A stretch of DNA of 64,000 bases from Candidatus Poribacteria bacterium. GTDB lineage: Bacteria; Poribacteria; WGA-4E; WGA-3G. The translations under genes and the position numbers were made by a program. Positions 5,320-62,485 of this stretch are shown piece by piece (within the stretch, counting starts at the first letter, position 1; the number at the start of each line of letters is the position of its first letter). The notes below the pieces were generated by a model. The model had not been told where the DNA came from, did not search any database, and saw only the letters and a list, made by a program, of their open reading frames with translations. Location: NCBI GenBank assembly GCA_022821965.1, contig JAJECN010000037.1, forward strand, positions 1-64,000. The letters are read 5' to 3'.

Positions 5320-8300
5320 TTACTGTGTTTTCTGCGAAAGTGCTTTAAAATACTTTCGCAGCTGCTCCCGATACTGGAACGGAATGTTCTCAAACTCTTT
5401 TGCGTGCGGTGTCGTTTCTAATTTCCGAACGATTTCGAGTAATTCAGGGTGTAAAGGTGGAACTTCCTGCGCAGGTGCCTCAGAATTTTCTGCGACTTCT
5501 GCCTTGCGCTGTTTACCGACATCCCGTTTCTGCAGCGATTTTAGACTATCGAGCATCCGCGTCAAAATCTGCGTTTGTCTATCGATCACCTGTTCGTCGA
5601 GTTCACCCTGACGAAGTGATTTCTCAACCTCTGTCATCTCCTCAGCAACATCTTCAAGACTGCCGAGCATCTGTGCCATCTGCTCTGCCCGTTCAGCGAG
5701 TCGTTCGGCTGCCTCTCGAATCAGCTGCTGTTGGTCGGCGAGTTGCTGCATCATCTGTTCAAGTCCCGGAGTTCGTCCCTGTTCCCGCATTTGCTGGTTC
5801 AGGTTCTGCGCCATCTCGTTCAGCTGCTCCTGACTCTCAGCGAGTTGTTGCAACTGTTCCATCATATTCTCAAACCCACTGGCATCCATCTGTTGGTTCA
5901 TCTGTGCCATCGCGTCAAGCAGTTCAAAGATAGCTTGATTGAGATCGGCAAGTGCTGTCCTTTGGATCGGCAGTGCGAGGTTCGGCTGTCTATCCTCCAA
6001 TGCCCGTGCAGCACGCGAGAGGGCATCGTTTGAGGCGTTAAGATGCCATATCACTTCAGGCGGCACTTCCATCTGTCGATTCCCTAACTCCCAAAGCTTA
6101 CTGGAAAGTTGGGTAATGCTCTCCGCCGCACCGAGTTCATCGGCAGCGAGTTGCTGCAAGCGCACAATCTCATTCGGAATATAGGCATCAGTTTGCCCAG
6201 CGATGAGAATGTCATTGGTTTCGGTAAGCACCTTTTCATGGAGATGCGAGAGATGCAGCCCACTCTGAACGGCTTCCTGCAGTGCTGTCAACGTTTCGTT
6301 AGCGTTCGCACCTTCCATAAAGGCAAGCGCGTTATCCAAGCCTTGCGCGACCTCTGTGAGTGTCTGTTCTGCTTCCCGTCCCGATTCGAGTGCTTCACTG
6401 TTCTGCCCACTTCGGAGATTCTCACTGGTCGCCTCAAGTGTTTCAGACAATTTTTGGTCGCGCGCAAACTGATTGAGCCGTATGATCTCATCTGCAAGTC
6501 GCTCGATTTGCGGTGGGCTGTTCTGACTGTTTTGAGCCATCTCCTTCATCTCTGTGCCGAGTTCATCTAACTCTTTGCTGAGATGTTCAAATTCGCTTGC
6601 GACTCTGTCCTCCTTTTGTGCGAGGTCATTTACAGGCGCGGCTTGTGCCTCCGATGCCAACGTATCCATCAGCTGCTTCTGTTGTTCAGCGAGAGCCTTC
6701 GCTTGTTTGGCTGCAGCCTCCAGTCTTTGTTGGAGGAGAATCTGTTCATAAAGCGATTTGGCACGTTCCAATTGTTGTAAAAACTGCTCTTGGCTGAGGT
6801 TCGCTTCCGTCATCGACTGCTCTTGCTCGCTCATCTGTTGTTTCGCCAGTGCTTCTGAAAGTTTCTGCAAAAGTTCTTTATGCTCTTCAGAAAGTGCTTG
6901 CTCCATCAGATTTTGCAGCTCCTGATATTTTTCGATCGTCTCAGTATCAAAGAGCTGATCCTGCTCCATCTCCTCTGCCGTCTGCTTCATATCTTCGATC
7001 AGCTGCTTGGCTGTTTCCTCAATCTGCTTCTGATTTTCAAGCACCTGCTGCATCAGGTTCTCATCGTTGAGGGTAAGCTCCTGGCTCTTCCTAATCTTAT
7101 CAAGGAGTGTGTCAACCAAACCGGTAGCATCCGCCTGTTCGTCAACAAGCTCTTCAAGTCCTTGCTGTTCAACCTCTTGTTCGGAAGCAATCGCATCGTA
7201 TAATTCGGAGAGAGACGGGAAACGGAGCGTATAGGTATGAGATTTCCCGATATTGGGTCCTGAGACGTTATCAATATCCAACGCTTGGACGTAATAAGCG
7301 ATCGTTTCACCCGGAAAAATGCCTATCCGATCCACGTCCCATGTGTATGTCACTGAAACCGAGCTGCGCACAGCGGCACCCGCTGAATCCCAACGTTTCA
7401 ATGGGACATTTACCTCCTCGGCACCCTCACTCTCAACGCGATATACCAATTGGAGTTCCTGTATGCCATAATCATCTGTGGCTTCTACTTTTAGTTCCAC
7501 CAGCATAGCATCATCCAAGACGGTATCCCGTGCAGGTTCAACAATAATAACCTCAGGTGCGGCATCTTCAAGCACAGTGAGCATATACTTCACTGGATCC
7601 CGATTTGTGAAACCCTCAACATCAGTAATTTGGATATGGTAGTTCTCACTCTCTTGGGGAATAAAAGATCCTTGAATGGAAGAGGGAAGGGTAGAAGCGT
7701 CGGTGCCTACCTTTTCATCGTTCGATCCTTCCACCACTCCATCTTGTGTAATAGTCTCTTGTAAATGGTTTTCCTTAATTTCTAATGGAACATCACCTGA
7801 TGCTTCAAAGACGAGAGACGCTATCTGAAGCCGTTTATTGCTCTTCCCGGTGAACACAATTTCCGTTCCAAAAAGCACTTGAATGTCCCCGATGTCCGCC
7901 GGAAGCGTCTGGGACTGCAGCTGCGTGTAGGCTGGGTAATTGAGTCGATACTGGAACTGCGTGACGATTGGCTCATTGCTGATTGTCACCTGATACTGTG
8001 CCGATGCGACCTCATTGACAGAGATATAATATTGAAGCGGACGCGCCACATTTTCAAGGGTCGCGCTATATGGAAATAGTGTATCAGAAGTTTGTGAGAT
8101 GTGTCCAGTGTCAATGGGGGTACGGTACATCGGTAGCGGTTGCCATTCAGCGGTTGATGTTACCTCATCACTACTTCCAACGCGATAGTAGAGCGAGACA
8201 GGCGCGTCGAAGTGCCCACCTACTTTGGCAGTCACCTTAACATCACTCCCCCGTTCAATCTGAATACTACCGGGTTGAATTTCTGTAATTTGAATAGTGT

Positions 8301-8943
8301 CTTTCAGATACGCGGAATCTTCCTGCAGTGCTTTCGGTAAGGTTTGAAATGCCAGGGCAAAACCGGTAAAAGCGGTAGGTAAGAGAAGATGTGTAATCAA
8401 GAGAAGCCCCACACCTGCGACAGCTATACCCGCATTTCGTTTAATCTTCTGAAACTCGGTTTGGAATACCCGCTTAGGTTGAAACTGTTCTACGTCTTGA
8501 CCGGCTTGAACAATAAGGTGTTCGATAAACTCAGGTGCATATCCAAGCGGATTATCCGTCAGGTTTTTCCGAAGTTGTATAGCACTGAGAATTCGGTTTT
8601 GGGAGGAAAACTCCGTTTCTATCTGTGTTGATTCAAGGCGCGCCGCGACCGCAGTATCCGTGAATTTACCGCAGAGCGGTAGAATAAGTGTTCGGATGAC
8701 CGCATAGATAGCACCGCCTATTGCCAATAAAAGGATCGCTATACGTATCCAGCGCGAGAAGGGAAACTGCCATGCTTGGAAACTCAACGTCAAAATGATA
8801 AGTGTACTTGCCATCAGCAACGCAAGAATCGCAAAGCACTTTAGCACACTTTCGGAGAAAATGAGCCATCGCCATTGTCGCCGAACAGCACGCAAGCGAG
8901 TCATAATATTTTCGTAAGCACGGTTCACATCTCGTGTTTCCAT
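5320..8943 (-). CDS. DUF4175-like membrane protein with long coiled coil
   Basis: A 1207-aa protein of the DUF4175-like type. Two membrane segments lie near the N-terminus (about residues 34-55 and 68-92) and a third near 170-195. A periplasmic beta-sandwich-rich part follows (to about 560). The last roughly 620 residues are Gln/Glu/Leu-rich coiled coil, with many AEQMAQM and QQLADQQQ type heptads. It is the third gene of a leftward cluster with a DUF4159 protein and a vWA/GATase-like membrane protein, an arrangement seen near MoxR/Bat (aerotolerance) loci. Role is unknown; a periplasmic scaffold for the vWA partner is an inference. The 165-bp gap to the DUF4159 gene is filled by short repeats. 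No clear ribosome-binding site is visible. Confidence 0.8.
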   Translation of the reverse strand: METRDVNRAYENIMTRLRAVRRQWRWLIFSESVLKCFAILALLMASTLIILTLSFQAWQFPFSRWIRIAILLLAIGGAIYAVIRTLILPLCGKFTDTAVAARLESTQIETEFSSQNRILSAIQLRKNLTDNPLGYAPEFIEHLIVQAGQDVEQFQPKRVFQTEFQKIKRNAGIAVAGVGLLLITHLLLPTAFTGFALAFQTLPKALQEDSAYLKDTIQITEIQPGSIQIERGSDVKVTAKVGGHFDAPVSLYYRVGSSDEVTSTAEWQPLPMYRTPIDTGHISQTSDTLFPYSATLENVARPLQYYISVNEVASAQYQVTISNEPIVTQFQYRLNYPAYTQLQSQTLPADIGDIQVLFGTEIVFTGKSNKRLQIASLVFEASGDVPLEIKENHLQETITQDGVVEGSNDEKVGTDASTLPSSIQGSFIPQESENYHIQITDVEGFTNRDPVKYMLTVLEDAAPEVIIVEPARDTVLDDAMLVELKVEATDDYGIQELQLVYRVESEGAEEVNVPLKRWDSAGAAVRSSVSVTYTWDVDRIGIFPGETIAYYVQALDIDNVSGPNIGKSHTYTLRFPSLSELYDAIASEQEVEQQGLEELVDEQADATGLVDTLLDKIRKSQELTLNDENLMQQVLENQKQIEETAKQLIEDMKQTAEEMEQDQLFDTETIEKYQELQNLMEQALSEEHKELLQKLSEALAKQQMSEQEQSMTEANLSQEQFLQQLERAKSLYEQILLQQRLEAAAKQAKALAEQQKQLMDTLASEAQAAPVNDLAQKEDRVASEFEHLSKELDELGTEMKEMAQNSQNSPPQIERLADEIIRLNQFARDQKLSETLEATSENLRSGQNSEALESGREAEQTLTEVAQGLDNALAFMEGANANETLTALQEAVQSGLHLSHLHEKVLTETNDILIAGQTDAYIPNEIVRLQQLAADELGAAESITQLSSKLWELGNRQMEVPPEVIWHLNASNDALSRAARALEDRQPNLALPIQRTALADLNQAIFELLDAMAQMNQQMDASGFENMMEQLQQLAESQEQLNEMAQNLNQQMREQGRTPGLEQMMQQLADQQQLIREAAERLAERAEQMAQMLGSLEDVAEEMTEVEKSLRQGELDEQVIDRQTQILTRMLDSLKSLQKRDVGKQRKAEVAENSEAPAQEVPPLHPELLEIVRKLETTPHAKEFENIPFQYREQLRKYFKALSQKTQ

Positions 8944-8951
8944 CGTATAAT

Positions 8952-9103
8952 AGTTGTCAGTTATTAGTTGTCAGAGGAAGAGTCATCAGTTGCCTCGCAG
9001 TGAGAGTTAAGAGGGTTCTTGTGGCAGCCACAGCACCTCCTGTCACTGATAACTGATAACCGATAACCGAAAACTGATCCTCTGAAAACTGAAAACTGAA
9101 AAC
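8952..9103. repeat. Cluster of short AACTGATAAC-type repeats
   Basis: Repeated short units fill the gap between the DUF4175-like and DUF4159 genes. On the left are GTTGTCAGTTATTAGTTGTC and, on the right in inverted sense, ACTGATAACTGATAACCGAT followed by GAAAACTG units. Related units occur at 9822-9842 and 20838-20866. In the latter, AGTTAAGAG is shared with 9006-9014. They have no coding potential and could form imperfect hairpins. Confidence 0.6.
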
Positions 9104-9108
9104 CTCCT

Positions 9109-9801
9109 TTAGTGCGTTAGGGCGTATACAGCAATATTCACCGCCATCTTTGCTGCAAGTTCGCGCACTCGTGGCGTATCATCCGGATGTACGTCAGCAT
9201 CTTCAAGACCATCACCGATGTCAGCATTGTAAGCATAATAAACAACCATGCGTCCGTCGTGAAAGAGTCCAAATCCTTGTGCAGGCTCCGCATCATGTAC
9301 ATGAATCTTCGGCAAGCCTTTCAGTTCATAGAAGCAGCGATAAATTAGATGTGTATTCGGTATCGGTTGCAACTCCTGTTCTGGAAAAACCCGACGCATT
9401 TCACGGCGAAAACTCTCATCAAGTCCGTAATCATCATTGGCGAATAGAAACCCGCCGCGCGTGAGATAGTCGCGCAACGCTTCAACCTCACTCTCGGTCA
9501 ACCGAATATTCCCGTGTCCTACCAAGTAGAGCATCGGGTATTGATAAAGCGTATGATCCGTCAACTTAAGGATTACCCTGTCCTTAGCGGTTTCAATACC
9601 TGTTCGGGTTCGGAGGAGCTGGAGCCAATTCTTAATCGTCGTCGCGTCCCCGTACCAATCGCCACCCCCACCATAATGAACTTGTGCGATCGTTAGCGAA
9701 ACATTGGAAGCTTGCAAACCGCTCCCCCCTTGTATTCCAAGCATCGCGCAAAATAGGAGACAACCGACCAAAAAGAGTTTCCATTTAATTGATAGTATCA
9801 T
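9109..9801 (-). CDS. DUF4159 domain-containing exported protein
   Basis: A 230-aa protein with an N-terminal signal peptide or anchor (LFLVGCLLFCAMLGIQGGSG). A DUF4159 domain follows, with its GGGGDWY start, the strand YPMLYLVGHGNIRLTESE and GGFLFANDDYG. The fold resembles a GATase-like Rossmann domain with probable loss of catalysis. In other genomes DUF4159 proteins sit in Bat-like clusters with vWA and DUF4175 proteins, as here. Function is unknown. It lies between its two partners on the same strand, 46 bp from the upstream vWA gene. Confidence 0.88.
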   Translation of the reverse strand: MILSIKWKLFLVGCLLFCAMLGIQGGSGLQASNVSLTIAQVHYGGGGDWYGDATTIKNWLQLLRTRTGIETAKDRVILKLTDHTLYQYPMLYLVGHGNIRLTESEVEALRDYLTRGGFLFANDDYGLDESFRREMRRVFPEQELQPIPNTHLIYRCFYELKGLPKIHVHDAEPAQGFGLFHDGRMVVYYAYNADIGDGLEDADVHPDDTPRVRELAAKMAVNIAVYALTH

Positions 9802-9847
9802 ATTTTGTCGTTAGCACCTCTTGTCACCGATGACTGATAACCATCCC

Positions 9848-12223
9848 TCAAGTCAGTCCGATACGCTTGCGTAAAAACCATTCAGTCCCCAACAACCCGA
9901 CGACCGTAAGAAGAACCAAAGGATGTGCCCAAAGTTCGCGCTCTGCATCGACAAATATAGAATTCTGAACATCGGCAATGTTCTCAAGCATCAATTCCGC
10001 ATCAGCGATGGAAAAATAGGCACCACCCGTTCGCGATGCAAGTTGTTTCAGTAAGTCTTCATTGAGTTGCGGACTCTCTAATTCCGCAAGCTGCGGATGG
10101 ACGAAAATATCGAGCCGATCCTCGCCTAAGTTTAGATTGCCACTCCTACCCGTTGCGCGAATACGGTAGTTCCCCTTCTGTCGCAGTGCGAATTGAGCAG
10201 TATAGAGGTTCCCCATGTTGGCGATTGTCCTTTGTTGTGTCGCCCCTTCATTAGTGCTTTCAATCGCTGCGCGAATCTGGAGCTGGAAGGTCGCGCCATC
10301 GGGCGGTATCACTTCAATCTGTAACGTCGCGCCTGCTTGAGGTTGATATGTTTCAGAGTACAAATACGCTGTAACCCTCGCTGTATCCCCTATCGCGTAA
10401 GCGGAGGCATCGGTTGTAAGGTATATGTTCTTGTCGTCGGTGTCTGTTGCCATCCATCGCAACACCTGCGCCCAAAAGCGTGGATAGATCGTCCCATAGC
10501 GAGTATCTTTGAAAGTTTTAACACCGAAGTCCCAATTCCAGAGACCCTCTGCCGCGATGAGTAGACTTTTGCCCAATCCCGCTCTCTGAAGAATCAGAAT
10601 CGGTCTACCTTTCCCGTTCTCCATCAGAGGGGTTGCACCGCCCCTGAGACGAAATCCGCTAAATGACCTCGACAACGCCGGCATGTTTCGCCATAAAGTT
10701 CCACTGCTTTCGCCTAACATTGTGGTTCGGTCCGTTTGTGTATCACTCAGCTGCAACATCGGGTGAAACGCGCCGGATGGAGTCGGCTGCACAGTGAATT
10801 CTGTATCCTCTACACGACACCCGCTTCTTGGAATGTCAATTGGTAAAAGTTGGGCTAATTCCGTATTTCCAAGCCCATCGGCACCGAGCGTCCGCCGAGA
10901 GGGCAGAAAGATAATCGGTTTTCCCTGCACTTCAACGAACTCAACAATCGCACGTTGTTGGGTTTCGGTAAGATGCGCTGCCTCCAAATCACCTAAAATC
11001 AGCACATCATACTCGGAAAGCGCAGTCAGCGTTTCAGGAAATCGTGGGGTGTCCGATGCAGGCATTGTTTGTGGATAATACCCGTCTAATCGGTTAAGTA
11101 TAGTCCCCGCAAGTTGTTGATTTGATCTATTGTGTGATAAGATCGCACAAGTAGCCTCAATATCTGGATCCCGCTCCAATGCTCGTTTTAAGAACGTGTA
11201 GTCCCATCTCGGTGTGCCTTCGAGATAAAAAACGTTGAGTTTCGCTTTTACAACCTTCACAGAAAATGTCTTTTGATTGTTTGCCTCCGTGAGTTCACCG
11301 TCAAGTGTTGGAAGCACAACAGTATATTGGAAATTCCCCTCTGTCTGAGGGGTCAACTTTAATTCAACAACCTGTTTTGTGCTGTCACTCGTGGAATCTG
11401 CGTCTTGATGCGGTTCAAACGTCAACGTTGCGTCATCTATGAAACGCTTACTATTCGCTTCTCGCAACGAAAGGCGTGTTGTTTTACCAGTGTACCCCGT
11501 TTGCATAACACTCACACGAATGACGCTCTCATGGTTTGTGTAAGCAATCGGTGTATAGTCAACACGCTGAATCTGAATATCTTTCGGTGGATCCACAGAA
11601 CCGACACCTATCGGATAGATCGGCACCTCCAATGCAGTAATCCGTTCCAACGGAAATTTCCCAGAATTGTGTGCACCATCCGTAATAAGGACAATACCAG
11701 CACTCTGTTGCCCTTTCCATGCTGCTGCCGCCTCTCGGACAGCGGCTCCAATGTCAGTGAGCGCGCCTTCCGGTTCAAACGCTGGCATAGGGGAATCGTC
11801 ATCTTGTACCAATAGAACGCTTTGATGCAGTCTCGTATCGAAAGGATAAAGATGAACCTCAAACCTCTCCTGTAAGGCTTGCAGGAATTGCTGTGGTACA
11901 TTGAATAGAAGTTGATTTACCTGACTGAGCCTCGATTCAGACACCTCACGTATAGGTGGATCGATGAGTTGCATACTTCGAGAGGTATCCACTAAAATGG
12001 AGAGATGCGTTGACGGTGTGACATCTTTCTTTTCAATGACAACCGGTGCTAAGAGACATCCAAGCAGAATCGACGCTGCAACAATCCGCAGCACGACGAG
12101 TAAAAATCTATATCTTGGATCTATGGAACGCGCGCCCCGCAAGTAAAAGAATACAGTTATACCGATGACGATGCCAATACCGAGCGCAACTGCCCACCCG
12201 GGCCAAAAATAGGTGAATCGCAT
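9848..12223 (-). CDS. vWA / glutamine-amidotransferase-like membrane protein (Bat-type)
   Basis: About 791 aa. Two N-terminal membrane segments (AVALGIGIVIGITVFFYL and VVLRIVAASILLGCLLAPVV) come first. A von Willebrand A domain follows, with the metal-site motif DTSRSM and the strand GIVLITDGAHNS. Next is a GATase1-like region (YDVLILGDLEAAHLTETQ) and a C-terminal membrane helix before GTEWFLRKR. It probably senses or scaffolds in the periplasm with the DUF4159 and DUF4175-like products; the role is inferred from Bat-like clusters. I start it at ATG 12223 because AAAGGACT precedes it and the predicted transcription start (promoter -10 at 12250-12255) falls at the longer frame's first codon. 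Confidence 0.85.
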   Translation of the reverse strand: MRFTYFWPGWAVALGIGIVIGITVFFYLRGARSIDPRYRFLLVVLRIVAASILLGCLLAPVVIEKKDVTPSTHLSILVDTSRSMQLIDPPIREVSESRLSQVNQLLFNVPQQFLQALQERFEVHLYPFDTRLHQSVLLVQDDDSPMPAFEPEGALTDIGAAVREAAAAWKGQQSAGIVLITDGAHNSGKFPLERITALEVPIYPIGVGSVDPPKDIQIQRVDYTPIAYTNHESVIRVSVMQTGYTGKTTRLSLREANSKRFIDDATLTFEPHQDADSTSDSTKQVVELKLTPQTEGNFQYTVVLPTLDGELTEANNQKTFSVKVVKAKLNVFYLEGTPRWDYTFLKRALERDPDIEATCAILSHNRSNQQLAGTILNRLDGYYPQTMPASDTPRFPETLTALSEYDVLILGDLEAAHLTETQQRAIVEFVEVQGKPIIFLPSRRTLGADGLGNTELAQLLPIDIPRSGCRVEDTEFTVQPTPSGAFHPMLQLSDTQTDRTTMLGESSGTLWRNMPALSRSFSGFRLRGGATPLMENGKGRPILILQRAGLGKSLLIAAEGLWNWDFGVKTFKDTRYGTIYPRFWAQVLRWMATDTDDKNIYLTTDASAYAIGDTARVTAYLYSETYQPQAGATLQIEVIPPDGATFQLQIRAAIESTNEGATQQRTIANMGNLYTAQFALRQKGNYRIRATGRSGNLNLGEDRLDIFVHPQLAELESPQLNEDLLKQLASRTGGAYFSIADAELMLENIADVQNSIFVDAERELWAHPLVLLTVVGLLGTEWFLRKRIGLT

Positions 12224-36687: not shown

Positions 36688-37260
36688 ATGAAACCATTTC
36701 GGTTGGGTGCTTGCCAAGCATACCTAACTATATTAATTGTCGGTCTCACAATCTGCTGTTTCAGCGCAGGAAGCATCGGGCAGGAAGTCTTCAAAATCGG
36801 TGTAGTGAACACACAAAAAGTTTTAGAAGGATCTGCAAAAGCGAAGGACGCAACGGCACTACTCCAAGCGGCAAGTGATCGCCTGAAAGCGAAGTTACAG
36901 CAGCTGGCAGACGAAATCAGGACCCTACAAGAGAAGAAAGCAAAAACCGAGCTCTTTGTAGAAAGAGCGCAGACAGCGGATCTGGACAACGAAATTCTCC
37001 TCAAACAACAGGAATACCAACGTGAGGTCGAAGTCGGTCAACAGGCACTGCTTGAAAAAGAGCAAGAGTTGATGGAACCGATTTACAACGGTCTTCAAGA
37101 ACTCATTGTCCAAGTCGGTGAAGCCGAAAACTACGACATTATCCTCGAAAAACGGCTCATCACGCTTTATGTGAAAAAGGACTATGATTTGACGCAGCAG
37201 TTAATCGGCTTGATGAATAAAGACGACAAGAAGGACAAAAACGACGAAAATCCTGAATAA
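36688..37260 (+). CDS. OmpH/Skp-family periplasmic chaperone
   Basis: A 190-aa protein with a signal peptide (TILIVGLTICCFSAGSIGQE). The family core is EVFKIGVVNTQKVLEGSAKA. A long coiled coil follows (about 55-140) and the C-terminus is KDDKKDKNDENPE. Skp-like chaperones hold unfolded outer-membrane proteins for BamA. Its position after bamA fits this role. AAGGATTTAAATT before the ATG is the ribosome-binding site. Confidence 0.88.
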   Translation: MKPFRLGACQAYLTILIVGLTICCFSAGSIGQEVFKIGVVNTQKVLEGSAKAKDATALLQAASDRLKAKLQQLADEIRTLQEKKAKTELFVERAQTADLDNEILLKQQEYQREVEVGQQALLEKEQELMEPIYNGLQELIVQVGEAENYDIILEKRLITLYVKKDYDLTQQLIGLMNKDDKKDKNDENPE

Positions 37261-37338: not shown

Positions 37339-38391
37339 ATGCGTATGAAACTCAAGGAAATTTGTGAACGCTTGAATGGCGATCTTTCTGGGGATGGTGA
37401 TATTGAGATTACAGGGGTTTCCGGAATCAAGGAGGCACTCCCGACGCAAATTACGTTTGTCGCGAACCCCAAATACATCGCTGCCATAGCAACAACACAA
37501 GCCGGTGCGATTATTATTGGCCACGGTGTTAAGGGGAACGGAAAGCCAACCATTCGCGTTGAAAATCCGTATTGGGCTTTCGTTAAAGTGTTGGAAATGT
37601 TCGCATGGGATAAAAACCATCAAGCACTACCGGGGATCCATGAGACGGCAATTTTGGGAGAGAACGTCAAGCTCGGTGAGCGCGTCTCAATTCAGGCATT
37701 CGCTTGCATCAGCGACAACGTTGAAATCGGGGATGACACTGTTATCCAACCCTTTGTCTACATCGGCGAAGGAAGCAAGATCGGGGCTGATGGACTTATC
37801 TATCCACACGTCAGTATCCGAGAAGAGATAACCATTGGTGATCGGGTGATTATACACTGCGGGGCGGTCATTGGAAGCGACGGTTTTGGATTCGCACCCG
37901 TTAGCAACCGGCACCATAAAATCCCTCAAATCGGCACCGTCGTCATTGAGGACGACGTTGAGATCGGCGCGAATACGACGATTGATAGAGCGACGCTCTC
38001 CGAAACGCTTATCAAACGCGGCACTAAATTGGATAACCTCGTTCAGATCGCGCACAACGTTGAAATTGGGGAAGATTGCTGCCTCGCTGCACAGGTCGGT
38101 ATTGCCGGCAGTACAACGCTCGGCGACCGAGTCAATATTGCGGGGCACGGCGGTGCTGCTGGGCATCTGACCCTCGGCGAAGATAGCGTTGTCTATGCGA
38201 AATCCGCAGTTACAAAGGATATGCCCGCGGGAAGCCGTCTGTCTGGATTCCCTGCGCGTCCCCACAAGCAAGAACTAAGAATCCACGCCGCAACCCGGAA
38301 ATTGCCGGAATTGCTCCCTGAATTCACGAAACTCCAAAAACGGGTCGCAGAGTTAGAAGAAAAACTTCAAAAGTTGGAGGATGAATCGTAA
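37339..38391 (+). CDS. lpxD: UDP-3-O-acylglucosamine N-acyltransferase LpxD
   Basis: A 350-aa enzyme of lipid A synthesis that adds the second (N-linked) acyl chain. The N-terminal uridine-binding domain covers about 1-100. The left-handed beta-helix of hexapeptide repeats runs about 105-320, and a short C-terminal coiled coil ends the chain. The catalytic His is in NLVQIAHNVEIG. The start has AAAGGATTAGGGG before it; ATG 37345 is an alternative. Its end overlaps the next gene by 11 bp. No lpxA, lpxC or fabZ is adjacent. Confidence 0.94.
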   Translation: MRMKLKEICERLNGDLSGDGDIEITGVSGIKEALPTQITFVANPKYIAAIATTQAGAIIIGHGVKGNGKPTIRVENPYWAFVKVLEMFAWDKNHQALPGIHETAILGENVKLGERVSIQAFACISDNVEIGDDTVIQPFVYIGEGSKIGADGLIYPHVSIREEITIGDRVIIHCGAVIGSDGFGFAPVSNRHHKIPQIGTVVIEDDVEIGANTTIDRATLSETLIKRGTKLDNLVQIAHNVEIGEDCCLAAQVGIAGSTTLGDRVNIAGHGGAAGHLTLGEDSVVYAKSAVTKDMPAGSRLSGFPARPHKQELRIHAATRKLPELLPEFTKLQKRVAELEEKLQKLEDES

Positions 38392-39328
38392 ACACACTAT
38401 TAGAAACCAGATGCTTCAATTTCTTGACTATCTGGCAGTTTTACGACCGACGCTCCTCTTTCCGGTCTGGACACTCGTCCTCTTAGGCTATCATCACGGA
38501 AGTACGATGCCAGAAGCACCAACAACATCTCAACCTATAAGGTTGTGGGCAACGCTCTGTCTCTACACACTCCTTATGGGAGCTGTTTACATCGTCAACC
38601 AGATAACAGATCGTGAGACAGATGCAGTTAATAACAAGTTATATCTCGTTGCACAAGGTTATGTTAAACTAAAGGTGCTTAAATGGCAAATTGGTGTCCT
38701 GATAACGCTCTCAATTCTCCTGAGTCTACTCGTTTTTCCCAACAACCTCACCTATCTTATCCTCATTTCGCTTTCAACCATACTCGGATTCGCCTACTCT
38801 GTCCGTCCTTTTCGTCTGAAAGGAAAGCCCATTCTCGATTTGTGTGCCAACGCGCTCGGTTATGGAAGTCTCGCCTTTCTCGTAGGTTGGGTAACAATTA
38901 CACCAATTGATACCGAAGCGATCTGGCGAAGCCTCCCATATCTGTTCTGTGTCGCTGCAGCGTTCGTCAATACAACGCTCCCCGATTTAGCAGGCGACAA
39001 ACAGGGTGGAGATTACACAACAGGAGTGTGGCTTGGGACAAAACGGGCATGTCGGTTAAGTTTAGTCCTGTTACTCATCGCTATCGGTAGTGCTATATTC
39101 TTCAAGGACTGGATTGCAGGCACGGCAAGTATCGTCTGCCTACCAATCTTTATCTATATGAATTTTCGTCCGAGGCAGAACGTCATTATTTGGGGAACAC
39201 GCATTGGGATTCTAATGCTAAGTCTGTGCGCAAGTTTGTTATTTCCACTGTATTTACTCTGGTTTGTTGCGATATTATTCTCTCTCCGCTGGTATTATAG
39301 GGCACGTTTCAACATCCGTTATCCCTAA
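38381..39328 (+). CDS. UbiA-family prenyltransferase
   Basis: A 315-aa multi-helix membrane protein. The first Asp-rich motif is NQITDRETDAVNNKL and the second is LPDLAGDKQGGDYTTGVWLG. UbiA enzymes attach isoprenoid chains to quinone precursors, haem, chlorophyll or glycerol-phosphate acceptors. It is followed by a second UbiA gene closer to the archaeal DGGGP synthase type. The acceptor here is unknown. It starts inside lpxD; GGAGG touches the ATG, so a start at 38411 is possible. Confidence 0.85.
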   Translation: MNRKHTIRNQMLQFLDYLAVLRPTLLFPVWTLVLLGYHHGSTMPEAPTTSQPIRLWATLCLYTLLMGAVYIVNQITDRETDAVNNKLYLVAQGYVKLKVLKWQIGVLITLSILLSLLVFPNNLTYLILISLSTILGFAYSVRPFRLKGKPILDLCANALGYGSLAFLVGWVTITPIDTEAIWRSLPYLFCVAAAFVNTTLPDLAGDKQGGDYTTGVWLGTKRACRLSLVLLLIAIGSAIFFKDWIAGTASIVCLPIFIYMNFRPRQNVIIWGTRIGILMLSLCASLLFPLYLLWFVAILFSLRWYYRARFNIRYP

Positions 39329-39363: not shown

Positions 39364-40212
39364 ATGAAGACGTTAATAGCGTATATCGAACTGGCACGTC
39401 CACTTAACGGAATTATCGCCTTTATCTCTGCATGGCTCGGTGGGATGTTCGCCAGTCAAGGAAGGATAGAAAATCTTGTGGATATTCGTCTCCTGCTGGT
39501 TTCGGTTTCCGCGCTTGTCCTGCTTTCTGCTGGCAACGCCATAAATGATTATTGTGATTACAACATTGACCAGATTAATCGTCCACAGCGTCCTCTCCCT
39601 TCCGGACGAATTCGACGTGTGGAGGCACTCATCTTCGCCATAGTTCTTATCGTCATCGGTATCTGGTTGGGAGCACTGATTAACAAAAACGCAACAGGCA
39701 TTGCAATCCTCGTGTTTGTCGCACTTGTGAGTTATGCTTTCTGGTTGAAACGTACGCCTTTCATCGGTAATTTAGTTGTCAGTGGATTAACAGGTTTAAC
39801 CTTCATCGCTGGCGGCGTAGCAATAGACTCGGTCCAAGGCACCTTGATTCCAGCGATCTTTGCCTTTTTGTTCACAATGGCACGAGAGATTGTCAAAGAC
39901 CTTGAGGATACAGAAGGCGACCTCAAAAATAATGTGAAAACGCTTGCGACCCTCAACCCACGGATTGCCGCGTGGATAGCGATCAGTTTCATGGCATTGG
40001 TTATCCTGTTTAGCCCAATTCCATATCTATTCGGGTGGTATTCATGGCACTACCTGATCGTCGTTGGACTCGGTGTCGATCTGGTGCTCATCGGTTTGGC
40101 AATTCGTCTATGGCGAGATGTATCCAGAGAAAGTTGCGCATTCATTCAACGCTGGATGAAATGGGATATATTCGTCGGACTCGGAGCAATATACCTCGGA
40201 ACGTTTCTATGA
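39364..40212 (+). CDS. DGGGP-synthase-like UbiA prenyltransferase
   Basis: A 282-aa UbiA family protein. The first motif is NAINDYCDYNIDQINRPQRP (residues about 58-77), followed by LPSG. The second motif, REIVKDLEDTEGDLKNN, is near 175-190. NDYxDxxxDxINRPxRPLPSG is the form seen in archaeal digeranylgeranylglyceryl-phosphate synthase and its homologues. With the GGGP synthase 1.3 kb downstream it suggests attachment of two isoprenoid chains to glycerol-1-phosphate. This is an inference from family and context; another prenyl transfer is possible. Its stop overlaps the next start as ATGA. Confidence 0.8.
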   Translation: MKTLIAYIELARPLNGIIAFISAWLGGMFASQGRIENLVDIRLLLVSVSALVLLSAGNAINDYCDYNIDQINRPQRPLPSGRIRRVEALIFAIVLIVIGIWLGALINKNATGIAILVFVALVSYAFWLKRTPFIGNLVVSGLTGLTFIAGGVAIDSVQGTLIPAIFAFLFTMAREIVKDLEDTEGDLKNNVKTLATLNPRIAAWIAISFMALVILFSPIPYLFGWYSWHYLIVVGLGVDLVLIGLAIRLWRDVSRESCAFIQRWMKWDIFVGLGAIYLGTFL

Positions 40213-41429
40213 TAGACTACGATAAAGTCTTTGATTTCTTAGAAAGAGAAAACCTGAACGCAAACGCGGTGTCACGTTTCAAACAAGCGTATCATACCTT
40301 CCAAGAAACGGGCAAATGGCATCCTCCCTATGAGATATTTGTTACAGGCTGGCAGCAGCTTGACGGAGTTATGCTCATGGAACCGACGGATGCACTCAAC
40401 AGCGATTACCAAGTCCATCTCACAACGACAACCGAACGCGGTTTGAGAGAACTGTTGCTCGCATTTCCACGAGGTCGCATAGGTCTTTTCCCTCTCACGG
40501 AGAAATGGATAGATGACAGACTTCACGACCTTTTAGACGGGAATGTAGTTCAGACGAGTACCGGTTCTTTCTATCGAGGTATCAAACGAGGAAGCAGCAA
40601 AATATCGGAACAACGCCCTGTCTCGAAACGGAAAGATACAGTCGTTTCGCACCTTCGCAAGTTAGCCTCTTTGAAAGGGAAACTTGACCATGCCCAATTT
40701 GTCATTGAAGGGCATCTGACAGTGGAGCGAGCCGTGGAAGGTGGACTTCCGATCGAAACGCTTCTTTATACCACCGAATTCGTTGCGACATCGGAAGGGA
40801 AGGATATGCTCACGCGTGCAGCAAAAGAAAATTTATCCTTTTCTCAGGTAAGCAACGGGGTGATGGGTTCGGTCACAACAACACGACCTGTGCCGTCGAT
40901 AATTGCTTCCGTTCATCTCAACTACCCCAACTTCCTTGCGGAATCTGGTAGCCTCAATTTTCACTTCAGTCCGAGATGTTCATTACTAATAGCGGAAAAC
41001 ATCGGAAACCCTGACAATCTTGGAATGACGCTACGGACAGCAGACGCGGCGGGCGTATCCGCCGTCCTATTGAGTGGGAAAGGTGCGAACCCCTTTCATA
41101 AAAACTGCATCCGCGCCTCTCGTGGGGCCGTTGGACGTTTACCCCTATTTTATACGCCAGACACCGTTAGGGCAATTGAAGCCCTTCATTCGGCGGGTTG
41201 GTCCATATTAGGTGCCACGGCAAGTGCCGAAAACCTGTTGTATGAGGTAGAATTTTCGCTACCCACGGCTATCGTTGTAGGCAATGAGAACACGGGGCTC
41301 ACTGTTGAAACCCGTGAACGCTGCACAGAACTCGTCCGCATTCCGATGGCACCCGGACAATCTTCACTCAATGTCGGGGTCGCAGCAGGCGTTTCACTCT
41401 ATGAGTTAACACGCCAACACAGAATTTGA
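40209..41429 (+). CDS. TrmH/SpoU-family RNA methyltransferase with extra N-terminal domain
   Basis: About 406 aa. The C-terminal half is a SPOUT methylase of the TrmH/SpoU type. The substrate domain HAQFVIEGHLTVERAVEGG precedes the SAM-binding knot (ENIGNPDNLGMTLRTADAAG, VVGNENTGLT, IPMAPGQSSLNVGVAAGVSL). It 2'-O-methylates RNA. The first 160 residues are additional and not recognised; they include GLRELLLAFPRGRIGLFPLT. I start it at ATG 40209 in the ATGA overlap with the UbiA gene; a longer frame back to 40035 lies inside that gene. Confidence 0.85.
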   Translation: MIDYDKVFDFLERENLNANAVSRFKQAYHTFQETGKWHPPYEIFVTGWQQLDGVMLMEPTDALNSDYQVHLTTTTERGLRELLLAFPRGRIGLFPLTEKWIDDRLHDLLDGNVVQTSTGSFYRGIKRGSSKISEQRPVSKRKDTVVSHLRKLASLKGKLDHAQFVIEGHLTVERAVEGGLPIETLLYTTEFVATSEGKDMLTRAAKENLSFSQVSNGVMGSVTTTRPVPSIIASVHLNYPNFLAESGSLNFHFSPRCSLLIAENIGNPDNLGMTLRTADAAGVSAVLLSGKGANPFHKNCIRASRGAVGRLPLFYTPDTVRAIEALHSAGWSILGATASAENLLYEVEFSLPTAIVVGNENTGLTVETRERCTELVRIPMAPGQSSLNVGVAAGVSLYELTRQHRI

Positions 41430-41454
41430 CAAAGTGTCATAAATGTGTTAAAAT
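41426..41454 (+). promoter_or_regulatory. Sigma70-type promoter of the GGGP synthase gene
   Basis: TTGACA (41426-41431), a 17-base spacer and TAAAAT (41449-41454). The -35 box overlaps the stop codon of the TrmH-type gene, giving the GGGP synthase its own transcription start. Confidence 0.7.
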
Positions 41455-41543
41455 TCTTAACATCACCGCCGATTCACAACTCCCTCAACTTCAGAAAGGG
41501 CATAGCTTGCAAACCGAGGTTTAACGCAGGGGAAAAAGGAAAA

Positions 41544-42296
41544 TTGCATTTGAGATCAAATTGGGTTCTTGACTACCTCCACGAGGTCCTGAAAAAACAC
41601 CGTGCTGGCTATTTCGTTCTGATCGATCCAGAGCAGTGCGAAGTTGAAAAATGCGTCAAACTTGCGAAGGAAATTGAACTCGCAGGCGCAGATGCGATTT
41701 TGCTCGGTGGCAGCTTCTTAACGAACGATTTGCACCCTATTGCGAAAGCCCTCAAACAGGAAATAGAACTCCCTCTCGTTCTGTTTCCCGGTGATTCGAG
41801 GCACCTCACGCCCCACGCTGATGCGATTCTATACATCAGCCTTATAAGTGGGCGCAACCCAAACTATCTCATTAGCGAACAGGTCAAAGCCGCACCGTGG
41901 ATACAACGTTACGCACTCAAACCCATTCCTACCGGCTATATGCTTATTGAGGGAGGCAACAAAACCGCCGTTGAATTTATGAGCGGCACGATGCCTATCC
42001 CGCGTGATAAACCAGACATCGCGGGACCGCACGCCTTGGCAGCGCAGTACCTCGGTATGCAAATGGTATATTTAGAGGCAGGAAGCGGCGCGAAACACCC
42101 TGTTCCAGATGAAATGATAGCGACAGTGAAGGAGCAAATCAGCATTCCGCTAATCGTCGGTGGTGGTATCCGCACACCAGAAATCGCAGCGGAAAAAGTA
42201 GAAGCAGGGGCAGATTTCATTGTCACAGGCAATATCCTTGAAAAAAACGGATCCTTTGAACTCATGGCAGCGTTCGCTAACGCCGTTCACGGGTAA
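41544..42296 (+). CDS. Geranylgeranylglyceryl/heptaprenylglyceryl-phosphate synthase
   Basis: About 250 aa, a TIM-barrel prenyltransferase of the GGGPS/PcrB family. Motifs are YFVLIDPEQC, ADAILLGGSFLTND, YLEAGSGAKHPV and the phosphate-binding LIVGGGIRTPE. It forms the ether bond between an isoprenyl diphosphate and sn-glycerol-1-phosphate. I start it at TTG 41544 (GGGGAAAAAGGAAAA before it). The frame from 41445 starts inside the promoter spacer. In archaea this enzyme begins membrane-lipid synthesis, and bacterial homologues are known in Bacteroidota, Firmicutes and other FCB bacteria. Product length is not predictable from the sequence here. Confidence 0.93.
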   Translation: MHLRSNWVLDYLHEVLKKHRAGYFVLIDPEQCEVEKCVKLAKEIELAGADAILLGGSFLTNDLHPIAKALKQEIELPLVLFPGDSRHLTPHADAILYISLISGRNPNYLISEQVKAAPWIQRYALKPIPTGYMLIEGGNKTAVEFMSGTMPIPRDKPDIAGPHALAAQYLGMQMVYLEAGSGAKHPVPDEMIATVKEQISIPLIVGGGIRTPEIAAEKVEAGADFIVTGNILEKNGSFELMAAFANAVHG

Positions 42297-60493: not shown

Positions 60494-62485
60494 ATGTCAA
60501 ATCAATCCAGCACATCAAATGATAAACAACTTACAATTCAGGACATTATCCACGAGATAGAGCAAAAATCGAAAAGGGGCGGCTATATCTATCGCGGTGA
60601 ACCTCAATGTTATGATCGGGTATCCTCAAACCTCTGGCGCGAATATGGAATTAAACCGGAGGAATTTGATATAGAAGCTATCCAAATAGGGATATTAAAA
60701 GAAGCTAAGGAATTTGCCAACGAAATGGATGCTAATGATGATTTTACAATCCTAACCCAACTCCAACACTATGGAGGCAAAACCAATCTTATAGACTTTG
60801 CCACTGATTATCTGAGAGCAATATTCTTTGCTTGTGATAGTTCCGCCGACGAAGATGGTAGGATAATTTTGTTGCAAAGGACTCAAGAGATGAATGAAAA
60901 ATACCAAATAAAGGAACCACAAAACCCCCGTAACCGTGTGATCTCCCAAACAAGTATATTTGTCCGTCCGCCTAAAGGCTATGTCGAACCTGAAGACTAT
61001 ACAGTTATTGACATTCCAAAATCCTTGAAACAACCGATGTTAAATCGCCTGAGAAAGTACCATAACATATCTACGAAAACAATCTACAATGATCTACATG
61101 GTTATATTACGAAACAGAAAATTCATCAAACTCATGCGACTGAATTTTTTAAAGGTTTGACATGTGAAAAAAGAGAGCAGTATGATGATGCAATAATGCA
61201 TTATACAAAGGCTATCAAGTTAGAACCTCAAAAGGCTTCGGCATATAATAATCGAGCTCTAATTTATAAGGAAAAAAAAGATACTGACAAAGCAATCAAA
61301 GACTATAACAAAGCAATAGAACTCAAACCTGACTTTGCTGAAGCATATACTAATCGTGCGGTTACTTATGCCTCAAAAGATAATTATGATCTTGCCATTG
61401 AAGACTTAAACAAAGCAATAGAGCTAAATCATGATTTAGCTGAAGCGTATATGAATCGTGGCAATATTTACAGAAATAAAAGAGAATATATCAGGGCGGT
61501 TGAGGATTTTAATAAAGCAATAGAACTCAAACCTGACCTTGCTGAAGCGTATAACAACCGCGGGAATGCATATAAGGACAATAGGGAGTTTAACCGTGCC
61601 ATTGAAGACCTAAACAAAGCAATAGAATTGAAGCCCGATCTGATAGAGGCATATAACAACCGTGGCAATGCTTATAAAGACAAAGGCGAGTTTGACCGTG
61701 CTATTGAAGATTATAATACTGCTATACAACTCAAACCGGATTATGAAGAGACATATAACAACCGTGGCAATGCTTATAAAGACAAAGGTGAGTTTGACCG
61801 TGCTATTGAAGATTACAATACTGCTATACAACTCAAACCGGATTATGCTATTGCTTATTACAATCGCGGTAATGGTTACACAAAAAAAGGGAAATATGAC
61901 CTCGCCATTAAAGACTATAGTGTAGTAGAACAAATAGACCCTAATTTCTTCATGACATATATTGTAAGAGGTCAGGTTTACGAGAAAAAAGATGAACTAG
62001 ACCTCGCAATCAAAGATTATACGAAAGTAGAAAATCTCAACCCAAATTTAGCTATTGCCTATTTAATGAGAGGTCAGGTTTACGAAAAAAAAGATGAACT
62101 AGACCTCGCAATTAGGGACTATACCAAAACAATTGAACTTGATCCTAATTTTGCTATAACTTATGTCAAGCGCGGGCAAGTATACACGAAAAAAGGTGAA
62201 TGTAATCTCGCCGTCAAAGACCATACTAAAGCAATACAACTCAACCCTAACTTTGCCGAAGCCTATAACAATCGTGGCATTGCTTATGACAAAAAAGGTG
62301 AACTTGATAACGCTATTGTAGACCTCGATACAGCTATACAACTCAAACCTGATTTTGCCTCAGCTTATTACAATCTTGGTACTGTTTACCGCGAGAAGGG
62401 TGAAACTAACCTTGCCCTCCAAAACTTTAGAAAGGCGGCAGAACTGGATCCGCAAATGTTTAGTACACTCCGAACCGATAGGTAG
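60494..62485 (+). CDS. FRG-domain protein with about 12 TPR repeats
   Basis: A 663-aa protein. The FRG domain is N-terminal: YIYRGEPQCYDRVSS (about 31-45) and LTQLQHYGGKTNLIDFATDY (about 87-106). From residue 215 to the end are tetratricopeptide repeats, with the common unit AYNNRGNAYKDKGEFDRAIE. FRG domains are found in defence and toxin-like proteins, and TPRs bind partner proteins. I infer a sensor or effector; no catalytic evidence. The ribosome-binding site is GGAGGTG. It stands alone. Confidence 0.88.
   Translation: MSNQSSTSNDKQLTIQDIIHEIEQKSKRGGYIYRGEPQCYDRVSSNLWREYGIKPEEFDIEAIQIGILKEAKEFANEMDANDDFTILTQLQHYGGKTNLIDFATDYLRAIFFACDSSADEDGRIILLQRTQEMNEKYQIKEPQNPRNRVISQTSIFVRPPKGYVEPEDYTVIDIPKSLKQPMLNRLRKYHNISTKTIYNDLHGYITKQKIHQTHATEFFKGLTCEKREQYDDAIMHYTKAIKLEPQKASAYNNRALIYKEKKDTDKAIKDYNKAIELKPDFAEAYTNRAVTYASKDNYDLAIEDLNKAIELNHDLAEAYMNRGNIYRNKREYIRAVEDFNKAIELKPDLAEAYNNRGNAYKDNREFNRAIEDLNKAIELKPDLIEAYNNRGNAYKDKGEFDRAIEDYNTAIQLKPDYEETYNNRGNAYKDKGEFDRAIEDYNTAIQLKPDYAIAYYNRGNGYTKKGKYDLAIKDYSVVEQIDPNFFMTYIVRGQVYEKKDELDLAIKDYTKVENLNPNLAIAYLMRGQVYEKKDELDLAIRDYTKTIELDPNFAITYVKRGQVYTKKGECNLAVKDHTKAIQLNPNFAEAYNNRGIAYDKKGELDNAIVDLDTAIQLKPDFASAYYNLGTVYREKGETNLALQNFRKAAELDPQMFSTLRTDR
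61651..61854 (+). repeat. Near-identical 102-bp tandem repeats in the TPR gene
   Basis: Two adjacent 102-bp units (61651-61752 and 61753-61854) differ at only a few positions. Adjacent units are more diverged. They show recent duplication of one TPR. Confidence 0.75.

What the first reader, a model, noticed from the sequence alone, without database searches (positions are those of the whole stretch)
39364..42296. Archaeal-type ether-lipid enzymes in a bacterium with lipid A
A GGGP synthase (41544-42296) and a UbiA protein with the NDYxDxxxDxINRPxRPLPSG motif of DGGGP synthase (39364-40212) lie 1.3 kb apart, next to lpxD and bamA. Together they could attach two isoprenoid chains to glycerol-1-phosphate. 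FCB-group bacteria have been reported to carry such genes, so a mixed membrane is plausible, but neither product length nor activity is shown by the sequence.
Basis: partly seen in the sequence, partly recalled or inferred. Interest (0 to 1): 0.75.

Follow-up and report, generated by a model that had tools for sequence, protein, structure and literature searches.

The report
Archaeal-type lipid genes in Poribacteria
A bacterium of the sponge-associated phylum Poribacteria carries the two enzymes that archaea use to build their ether membrane lipids, kept side by side across most of its phylum and, in many relatives, together with a third enzyme that appears to contain selenocysteine, which makes a natural mixed bacterial/archaeal membrane a testable idea.

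Summary
41544-42296 encodes a group-II GGGP synthase (above NCBIfam's curated GGGP cut-off) and 39364-40212 a UbiA protein that falls inside the archaeal/FCB DGGGP-synthase clade, apart from quinone and heme enzymes. The genome belongs to Candidatus Poribacteria. In 85 genomes of the phylum both genes occur together in 72 and are both missing in 10; in 60 they lie on one strand within 7.3 kb, so linkage in bacteria is not restricted to Cloacimonetes as published. The pair sits in an outer-membrane biogenesis gene row (lol, bamA, ompH, lpxD). In other poribacterial families a ferredoxin and geranylgeranyl reductase (GGR) lie between the two genes. In about 16 genomes the conserved Cys of GGR is an in-frame TGA followed by a covarying hairpin, and tRNA-Sec is present: probably an undescribed selenoprotein. 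The window's genome lacks this GGR and has no CarS (only CdsA), so its diether is predicted to be unsaturated. The glycerol stereochemistry is unresolved: one G1PDH-like gene exists, but half of the genomes with the pair lack it. Presence of the pair in FCB-type bacteria is known; the phylum-wide cluster, the selenoprotein GGR and the GGR loss appear new. No lipid has been seen.

The parts
41544..42296 (+). GGGP synthase (group II, PcrB/GGGPS family), TTG start; GTG at 41445 is an alternative start
   Evidence: TIGR01769 and PRK04169.1-2 above cut-off; PDB 4mm1 E 7e-57 with the conserved Tyr and Tyr-x-Glu (YLEAGSG) residues aligned
39364..40212 (+). DGGGP synthase (UbiA superfamily), both Asp-rich motifs intact
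   Evidence: PF01040 1.3e-44; PRK12884/12882/12883 best models; MjDGGGPS 6m31; tree
38381..39328 (+). second, divergent UbiA-family membrane protein ('U2'), start codon overlapping the end of lpxD; conserved near DGGGPS in distant relatives
   Evidence: PF01040 73 bits; homologues near DGGGPS in L085, L086, L088, L092-L095; own clade in the tree
40209..41429 (+). SpoU/RlmB-type RNA methyltransferase between the two genes; ATGA overlap with the DGGGPS stop codon (a bystander by function)
   Evidence: PF00588 2.1e-35; overlap read from sequence
37339..38391 (+). lpxD (lipid A acyltransferase), adjacent gene
   Evidence: PF04613 LpxD
36688..37260 (+). ompH/skp-like periplasmic chaperone, part of the same gene row
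   Evidence: PF03938
34025..36481 (+). bamA (Omp85, POTRA domains), part of the same gene row
   Evidence: PF01103 and PF07244
41426..41454 (+). sigma70-like promoter candidate in front of GGGPS (TTGACA - 17 bp - TAAAAT); position read by eye, not tested
   Evidence: sequence of 41421-41550; inference

Best explanation
These are true orthologues of archaeal GGGP synthase and DGGGP synthase, working one after the other: GGGPS joins a C20 (GGPP) chain to glycerol phosphate, and the membrane-bound DGGGPS adds the second chain, giving an archaeal-type diether phosphate. The bacterial CdsA (no CarS found) would activate it for head-group attachment. The pair is ancestral in Candidatus Poribacteria, where the original cluster was DGGGPS - ferredoxin - geranylgeranyl reductase (GGR) - GGGPS next to lpxD. 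The window's genus kept the two ether-forming enzymes and mostly lost GGR, so its diether lipid is predicted to be unsaturated. Shown here: gene identity, phylogeny, linkage, co-loss, purifying selection, absence of GGR. Inferred: substrates, chain length, stereochemistry, direction of the GGR change, and that the product is a membrane lipid.
For: GGGPS above curated equivalog cut-off. DGGGPS clade with archaea and Calditrichota, KSB1, Latescibacterota, Ignavibacteriota and Neomarinimicrobiota sequences, separate from UbiA, MqnP, CyoE. Pair present together in 72 and absent together in 10 of 85 genomes, with only 3 exceptions (Fisher p 2e-10, not corrected for kinship); 60 of 72 on one strand within 7.3 kb, median gap 1.4 kb. 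Near-complete genomes without either gene fall in at least three genera (g1, g4, g9), so the two were lost together more than once. GGR with GGR_cat domain between DGGGPS and GGGPS in other families, best model digeranylgeranylglycerophospholipid reductase (321 bits), best PDB TaGGR 3oz2 E 3e-81. Two polyprenyl synthases and CdsA in the genome. Literature: Cloacimonetes GGGPS/DGGGPS make such lipids in E. coli, and CdsA can replace CarS (PMC7852524).
Against: The DGGGPS candidate scores below the curated cut-offs of all DGGGPS models. No in-genome GGR or CarS. The G1PDH-like gene is below its model's cut-off and absent from 36 of the 72 genomes with the pair, and present in two genomes without it. 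No lipid or activity data. Genomes that lost the pair survive, so the product is not essential.
Confidence: 0.78

Rival explanations
1. Only GGGPS makes a glycerol ether (a mono-ether, like heptaprenylglyceryl phosphate of Bacillus), and the UbiA protein serves another pathway such as quinone or polyprenol chemistry.
For: UbiA is a large superfamily; the UbiA protein is below all curated DGGGPS cut-offs; grouping with UbiA/MqnP is not rejected when the longest branches are kept (p 0.113).
Against: Separate MqnP/UbiA-type and heme O synthase genes exist in the genome (L008, L009); best structure and model matches are DGGGPS; linkage and repeated joint loss with GGGPS; without the longest branches the grouping is rejected at p 0.026.
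Confidence: 0.12
2. The enzymes run in reverse or in salvage, breaking down archaeal lipids taken from neighbours in sponge or particles (suggested for FCB bacteria by Coleman 2019, PMC6431249).
For: No firm G1P source and no GGR or CarS in this genome; Poribacteria live in sponges and sea water (PMC8546597).
Against: Many relatives have GGR and ferredoxin in the same cluster, which fits synthesis; the genes lie in an outer-membrane biogenesis row and not with catabolic genes.
Confidence: 0.06
3. A sub-question of the best explanation, not an alternative to it: the lipid has G3P, not G1P, stereochemistry, i.e. an archaeal-type diether of bacterial handedness.
For: The G1PDH-like gene does not follow the pair across the phylum; some GGGP synthases accept G3P (PMC7852524).
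Against: GGGPS strongly prefers G1P, and E. coli makes G1P by an unknown route (PMC7852524); this genome does have one G1PDH-like gene.
Confidence: 0.3

Closest known systems
GGGPS/DGGGPS pair of Candidatus Cloacimonetes and other FCB-group bacteria (Villanueva 2020, PMC7852524)
   Same: Both enzymes, same order of reactions, close linkage, no CarS, uncertain G1P source, bacterial CdsA.
   Different: Other phylum (Poribacteria is not named in that paper's main text; its supplements were not readable here); [quoted passage not shown] Cloacimonetes'; embedded in a bamA-ompH-lpxD row; GGR in the cluster in relatives but absent from the window's genome.
Archaeal diether lipid pathway (GGGPS, DGGGPS, GGR with ferredoxin, CarS, G1PDH)
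   Same: Orthologous GGGPS and DGGGPS; GGR and ferredoxin next to them in poribacterial relatives, as GGR and ferredoxin are neighbours in M. acetivorans (PMC9385802).
   Different: No CarS, no in-genome GGR, uncertain G1PDH, within a bacterium with Bam and LpxD.
PcrB / heptaprenylglyceryl phosphate synthase of Bacillus
   Same: Same Pfam family (PcrB).
   Different: The window protein scores 29.7 bits on the heptaprenylglyceryl phosphate synthase equivalog (cut-off 260) against 226.8 on GGGP.

Membership tests
GGGP synthase (group II) | Score above curated GGGP equivalog cut-off | tested here: met
   TIGR01769 226.8 against 161.6 bits; PRK04169.1-2 292.9 against 247
GGGP synthase (group II) | Conserved Tyr, Tyr-x-Glu catalytic residues and TIM-barrel phosphate-binding loops | tested here: met
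   Y165, Y209, E211, GSG, GGGI and TG conserved in alignment A2 and to 4mm1; residue roles from PMC9385802
GGGP synthase (group II) | GGPP (C20) used with G1P | not testable with these tools
   Needs an enzyme assay; the chain-length limiter of group II is poorly defined (PMC9385802)
DGGGP synthase | UbiA fold family with two Asp-rich motifs | tested here: met
   PF01040; NDYCDYNID and KDLEDTEGD
DGGGP synthase | Phylogenetic place among DGGGP synthases, apart from quinone and heme enzymes | tested here: met
   99/94 support; AU p 0.026 without, 0.113 with the longest branches
DGGGP synthase | Score above a curated DGGGPS model cut-off | tested here: not met
   229.8 against 269, 212.3 against 296, 175.8 against 353. 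These models are best matches but their cut-offs are strict; this lowers the membership claim to 'member of the DGGGPS clade by tree, below the curated score'
DGGGP synthase | Prenylation of GGGP | not testable with these tools
   Needs an enzyme assay
Complete archaeal diether pathway in the same genome | GGR present | tested here: not met
   Only a halogenase/CmlS-like flavoprotein in G000
Complete archaeal diether pathway in the same genome | CarS present | tested here: not met
   Only CdsA
Complete archaeal diether pathway in the same genome | G1P dehydrogenase present | tested here: inconclusive
   One G1PDH-like gene, 127 bits against cut-off 413
Selenoprotein (GGR of relatives, not in the window) | In-frame TGA at a conserved Cys in several independent genomes | tested here: met
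   16 loci with TGA, 8 with TGT/TGC at the same codon
Selenoprotein (GGR of relatives, not in the window) | SECIS-like hairpin shortly after the TGA, with covariation | tested here: met
   7-bp stem, same place in 14 of 14 aligned; 0 of 500 shuffles reach the covariation score; absent at that place in Cys homologues. The structure was predicted on the same alignment
Selenoprotein (GGR of relatives, not in the window) | Sec machinery in the genome | tested here: inconclusive
   tRNA-Sec above cut-off in 75 of 85 genomes; G024, which has the TGA, is not over the cut-off; SelA and SelB not tested

The most novel reading that the evidence does not exclude
Poribacteria naturally make archaeal-type diether lipids with a selenocysteine-containing geranylgeranyl reductase, from a gene cluster tied to outer-membrane biogenesis; the window's lineage has secondarily lost the reductase and makes unsaturated diethers beside its bacterial lipids.
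Probability: 0.45. Interest if true: 0.85.

Novelty: new variant of a known kind. Interest (0 to 1): 0.63.

Why it matters
The lipid divide between archaea and bacteria is a basic open question, and natural mixed membranes have been proposed but not shown. Poribacteria are widespread in sponges, so lipids of sorted cells could be measured directly. A phylum-wide linked GGGPS/DGGGPS pair, with GGR in the cluster of many relatives, is stronger genetic evidence for real synthesis than scattered homologues, and it corrects the published view that linkage in bacteria is confined to Cloacimonetes. A selenocysteine GGR would be, as far as the searched library shows, an undescribed selenoprotein and would point to a catalytic role for that conserved Cys. 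It also warns that archaeol-type biomarkers from sponges and marine particles may be bacterial.

Tried and rejected
1) GG-reductase-family hit in the window's genome (G000:C9:318829-319803) as the missing GGR: rejected, it matches CmlS/tryptophan halogenase and has no GGR_cat match. 2) CarS-like hit in G000: it is CdsA. 3) Second PcrB hit in G000 (C13): the 266-aa protein there looks like TrpA and matches only the shared barrel end (by reading, no family scan). 4) Idea that PlsY absence means an ether-only membrane: PlsY is absent in 79 of 85 genomes, but also in near-complete genomes that lack GGGPS and DGGGPS, and in Bacteroides and Corynebacterium controls, so another acyl route must exist. 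5) Neighbourhood of the G1PDH-like gene: conserved within the family but no lipid-pathway genes recognised by reading. 6) AU test with the long rows gave p 0.113; repeated without MenA, L011 and L221. 7) Rfam scan of the window: nothing. 8) Mapping the review's MtGGGPS residue numbers onto 4mm1 was inconsistent, so no chain-length call is made.

Full report
WHAT IS THERE. Both genes exist as described. The protein of 41544-42296 is a GGGP synthase by two curated models above cut-off and matches solved group-II enzymes. The protein of 39364-40212 is a UbiA-superfamily prenyltransferase whose best models and best solved structure are archaeal DGGGP synthases, though it stays below those models' curated cut-offs. 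The row on the + strand reads FtsX/MacB-type permease (lolC/E-like), ABC ATPase (lolD-like), an aminotransferase-like ORF, bamA, ompH, lpxD, a second UbiA-family protein (U2), DGGGPS, SpoU/RlmB methyltransferase, GGGPS, grpE, dnaJ, prmA. The lpxD/U2 and DGGGPS/SpoU coding regions overlap at their ends, which suggests one transcript; GGGPS also has a good sigma70-like promoter in front of it (read by eye).

WHOSE GENOME. The window is part of a 5.69-Mb, 62-contig genome. The nearest DGGGPS loci in named genomes are all Candidatus Poribacteria.

IS THE UbiA PROTEIN A DGGGP SYNTHASE? I built trees with poribacterial sequences, 64 relatives from archaea and bacteria, the other UbiA proteins of this genome (MqnP/UbiA type, heme O synthase, one unclear), E. 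coli UbiA, CyoE and MenA, MjDGGGPS, and the U2 set. The window protein lies in the poribacterial branch (99/98), next to Neomarinimicrobiota, KSB1, Calditrichota, Latescibacterota, WOR-3 and Ignavibacteriota sequences, within the archaeal DGGGPS radiation. Without three long rows, all DGGGPS form one side of a branch (99/94; 98% of bootstrap trees) and joining the poribacterial group to UbiA/MqnP is rejected (p 0.026); with the long rows it is not (p 0.113).

THE PAIR ACROSS THE PHYLUM. Of 85 genomes, 72 have both genes, 10 neither, 3 only one. The raw Fisher p is 2e-10; kinship is not corrected, but near-complete genomes lacking both fall in at least three genera (g9: G018-G022 while G023 of the same genus has both; g4: G045; g1: G070, G071). 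In 60 of the 72, DGGGPS lies upstream of GGGPS on the same strand, gap 1.4 kb at the median, at most 7.2 kb; single-contig chromosomes show the same, so contamination is an unlikely cause. Villanueva et al. wrote that linkage within bacteria seems restricted to Cloacimonetes (PMC7852524); this is a second phylum. Among the 80 named loci, other bacteria with DGGGPS did not show GGGPS within the flanks held, while several Thermoplasmatota did.

THE MISSING THIRD ENZYME. In other poribacterial families the two genes flank a ferredoxin and a geranylgeranyl reductase, fused (L085; in L086 the fused gene follows DGGGPS and runs off the contig) or separate (L093-L095). The reductase is of the digeranylgeranylglycerophospholipid type (321 bits; GGR_cat domain; T. 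acidophilum GGR 3oz2 E 3e-81). It is full-length in G001, G004-G006, G008, G011-G016, G023-G026 (fragments in G002, G003, G017), and scattered in the window's family (G040, G041, G044, G064, G065; G069 with a further stop; fragments in G035 and G060). It is absent from G000 and most of its genus, including the one-to-three-contig assemblies G080-G084. The only related flavoprotein in G000 is halogenase-like. So the window's genus should make unsaturated diethers, or use an unknown reductase. That this is loss, not late gain, is inferred from its presence in the earliest-branching genomes.

A SELENOPROTEIN REDUCTASE. At the codon of the Cys in PVRC-AEG, 16 loci have TGA and 8 have TGT or TGC. 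TaGGR has Cys at the aligned place. A 7-bp hairpin starts 16 bases after the first base of the TGA in all 14 aligned sequences, with 96.9% of cells paired, 14 two-sided changes and a covariation score that 0 of 500 shuffles reach; slid versions fall away. The Cys homologues do not have a hairpin at that place. tRNA-Sec is above cut-off in 75 of 85 genomes, G000 among them; G024 has the TGA but no tRNA-Sec above cut-off in its 80% complete assembly. Text searches for GGR or DGGGP enzymes with selenocysteine or selenoprotein found no such report, in an open-access library only.

REST OF THE PATHWAY. G000 has two polyprenyl diphosphate synthases, one nearest to archaeal IdsA/GGPP synthase models, and CdsA but no CarS; bacterial CdsA can serve CDP-archaeol (PMC7852524). 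A G1PDH-like Fe-ADH gene aligns with G1PDH including the metal-ligand Asp and two His, but is present in only 36 of 72 pair-bearing genomes and in two without the pair. Stereochemistry is therefore open. PlsY is absent in 79 of 85 genomes, including near-complete ones that also lack GGGPS and DGGGPS, so another acyl route must exist and PlsY absence does not argue for an ether-only membrane. Lipid A rests on LpxD alone here. Tes (tetraether synthase) homologues were reported in 10 of 29 Black Sea poribacterial MAGs (PMC11868695), which would extend the theme; not tested here.

VERDICT. Observation confirmed, interpretation supported, biology still inferred. The kind of finding is known from FCB bacteria; the phylum-wide linkage, the GGR within the cluster, its probable selenocysteine, and its absence from the window's genus are the new parts.

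Noticed in passing
L093:10891, L094:8856, L095:9112 and L116-L132 (TGA positions): In-frame TGA at the conserved Cys of geranylgeranyl reductase followed by a covarying hairpin: candidate new selenoprotein in Poribacteria.
   Followed up: yes
window 38381-39328; L085, L086, L088, L092-L095: Second UbiA-family protein next to lpxD and DGGGPS with its own conserved motifs (NQ..D...D..N.K and D..GD....D.TTG); forms its own clade; broken into several frames in G081 (L103). Function unknown.
   Followed up: partly
L085:2948-4624, L086:7334-8998, L088:6375-8006, L092:4283-5905: A 540-560 aa protein just upstream of DGGGPS in early-branching relatives; the one copy scanned (L085) has no Pfam match.
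   Followed up: no
85 poribacterial genomes: PlsY glycerol-phosphate acyltransferase is missing in 79 of 85, so the first acylation step of their bacterial phospholipids must use another enzyme.
   Followed up: partly
G000:C15:55607-56647 (L003, L229): G1PDH-like Fe-ADH_2 protein with patchy distribution, in a neighbourhood without recognised lipid genes.
   Followed up: partly
G069:C136:31529-32716 (L125): Reductase gene with the Sec TGA and a further in-frame TAG 19 codons later: possible decay or assembly error.
   Followed up: no
L206 (Melioribacteraceae) 8496-9934: Ferredoxin-like ORF and GGR-like gene facing away from a DGGGPS homologue in Ignavibacteriota.
   Followed up: no
window 5320-8943: ORF of 1207 aa without any Pfam match at 1e-8.
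   Followed up: no
window 60494-62485: FRG domain followed by many TPR repeats.
   Followed up: no
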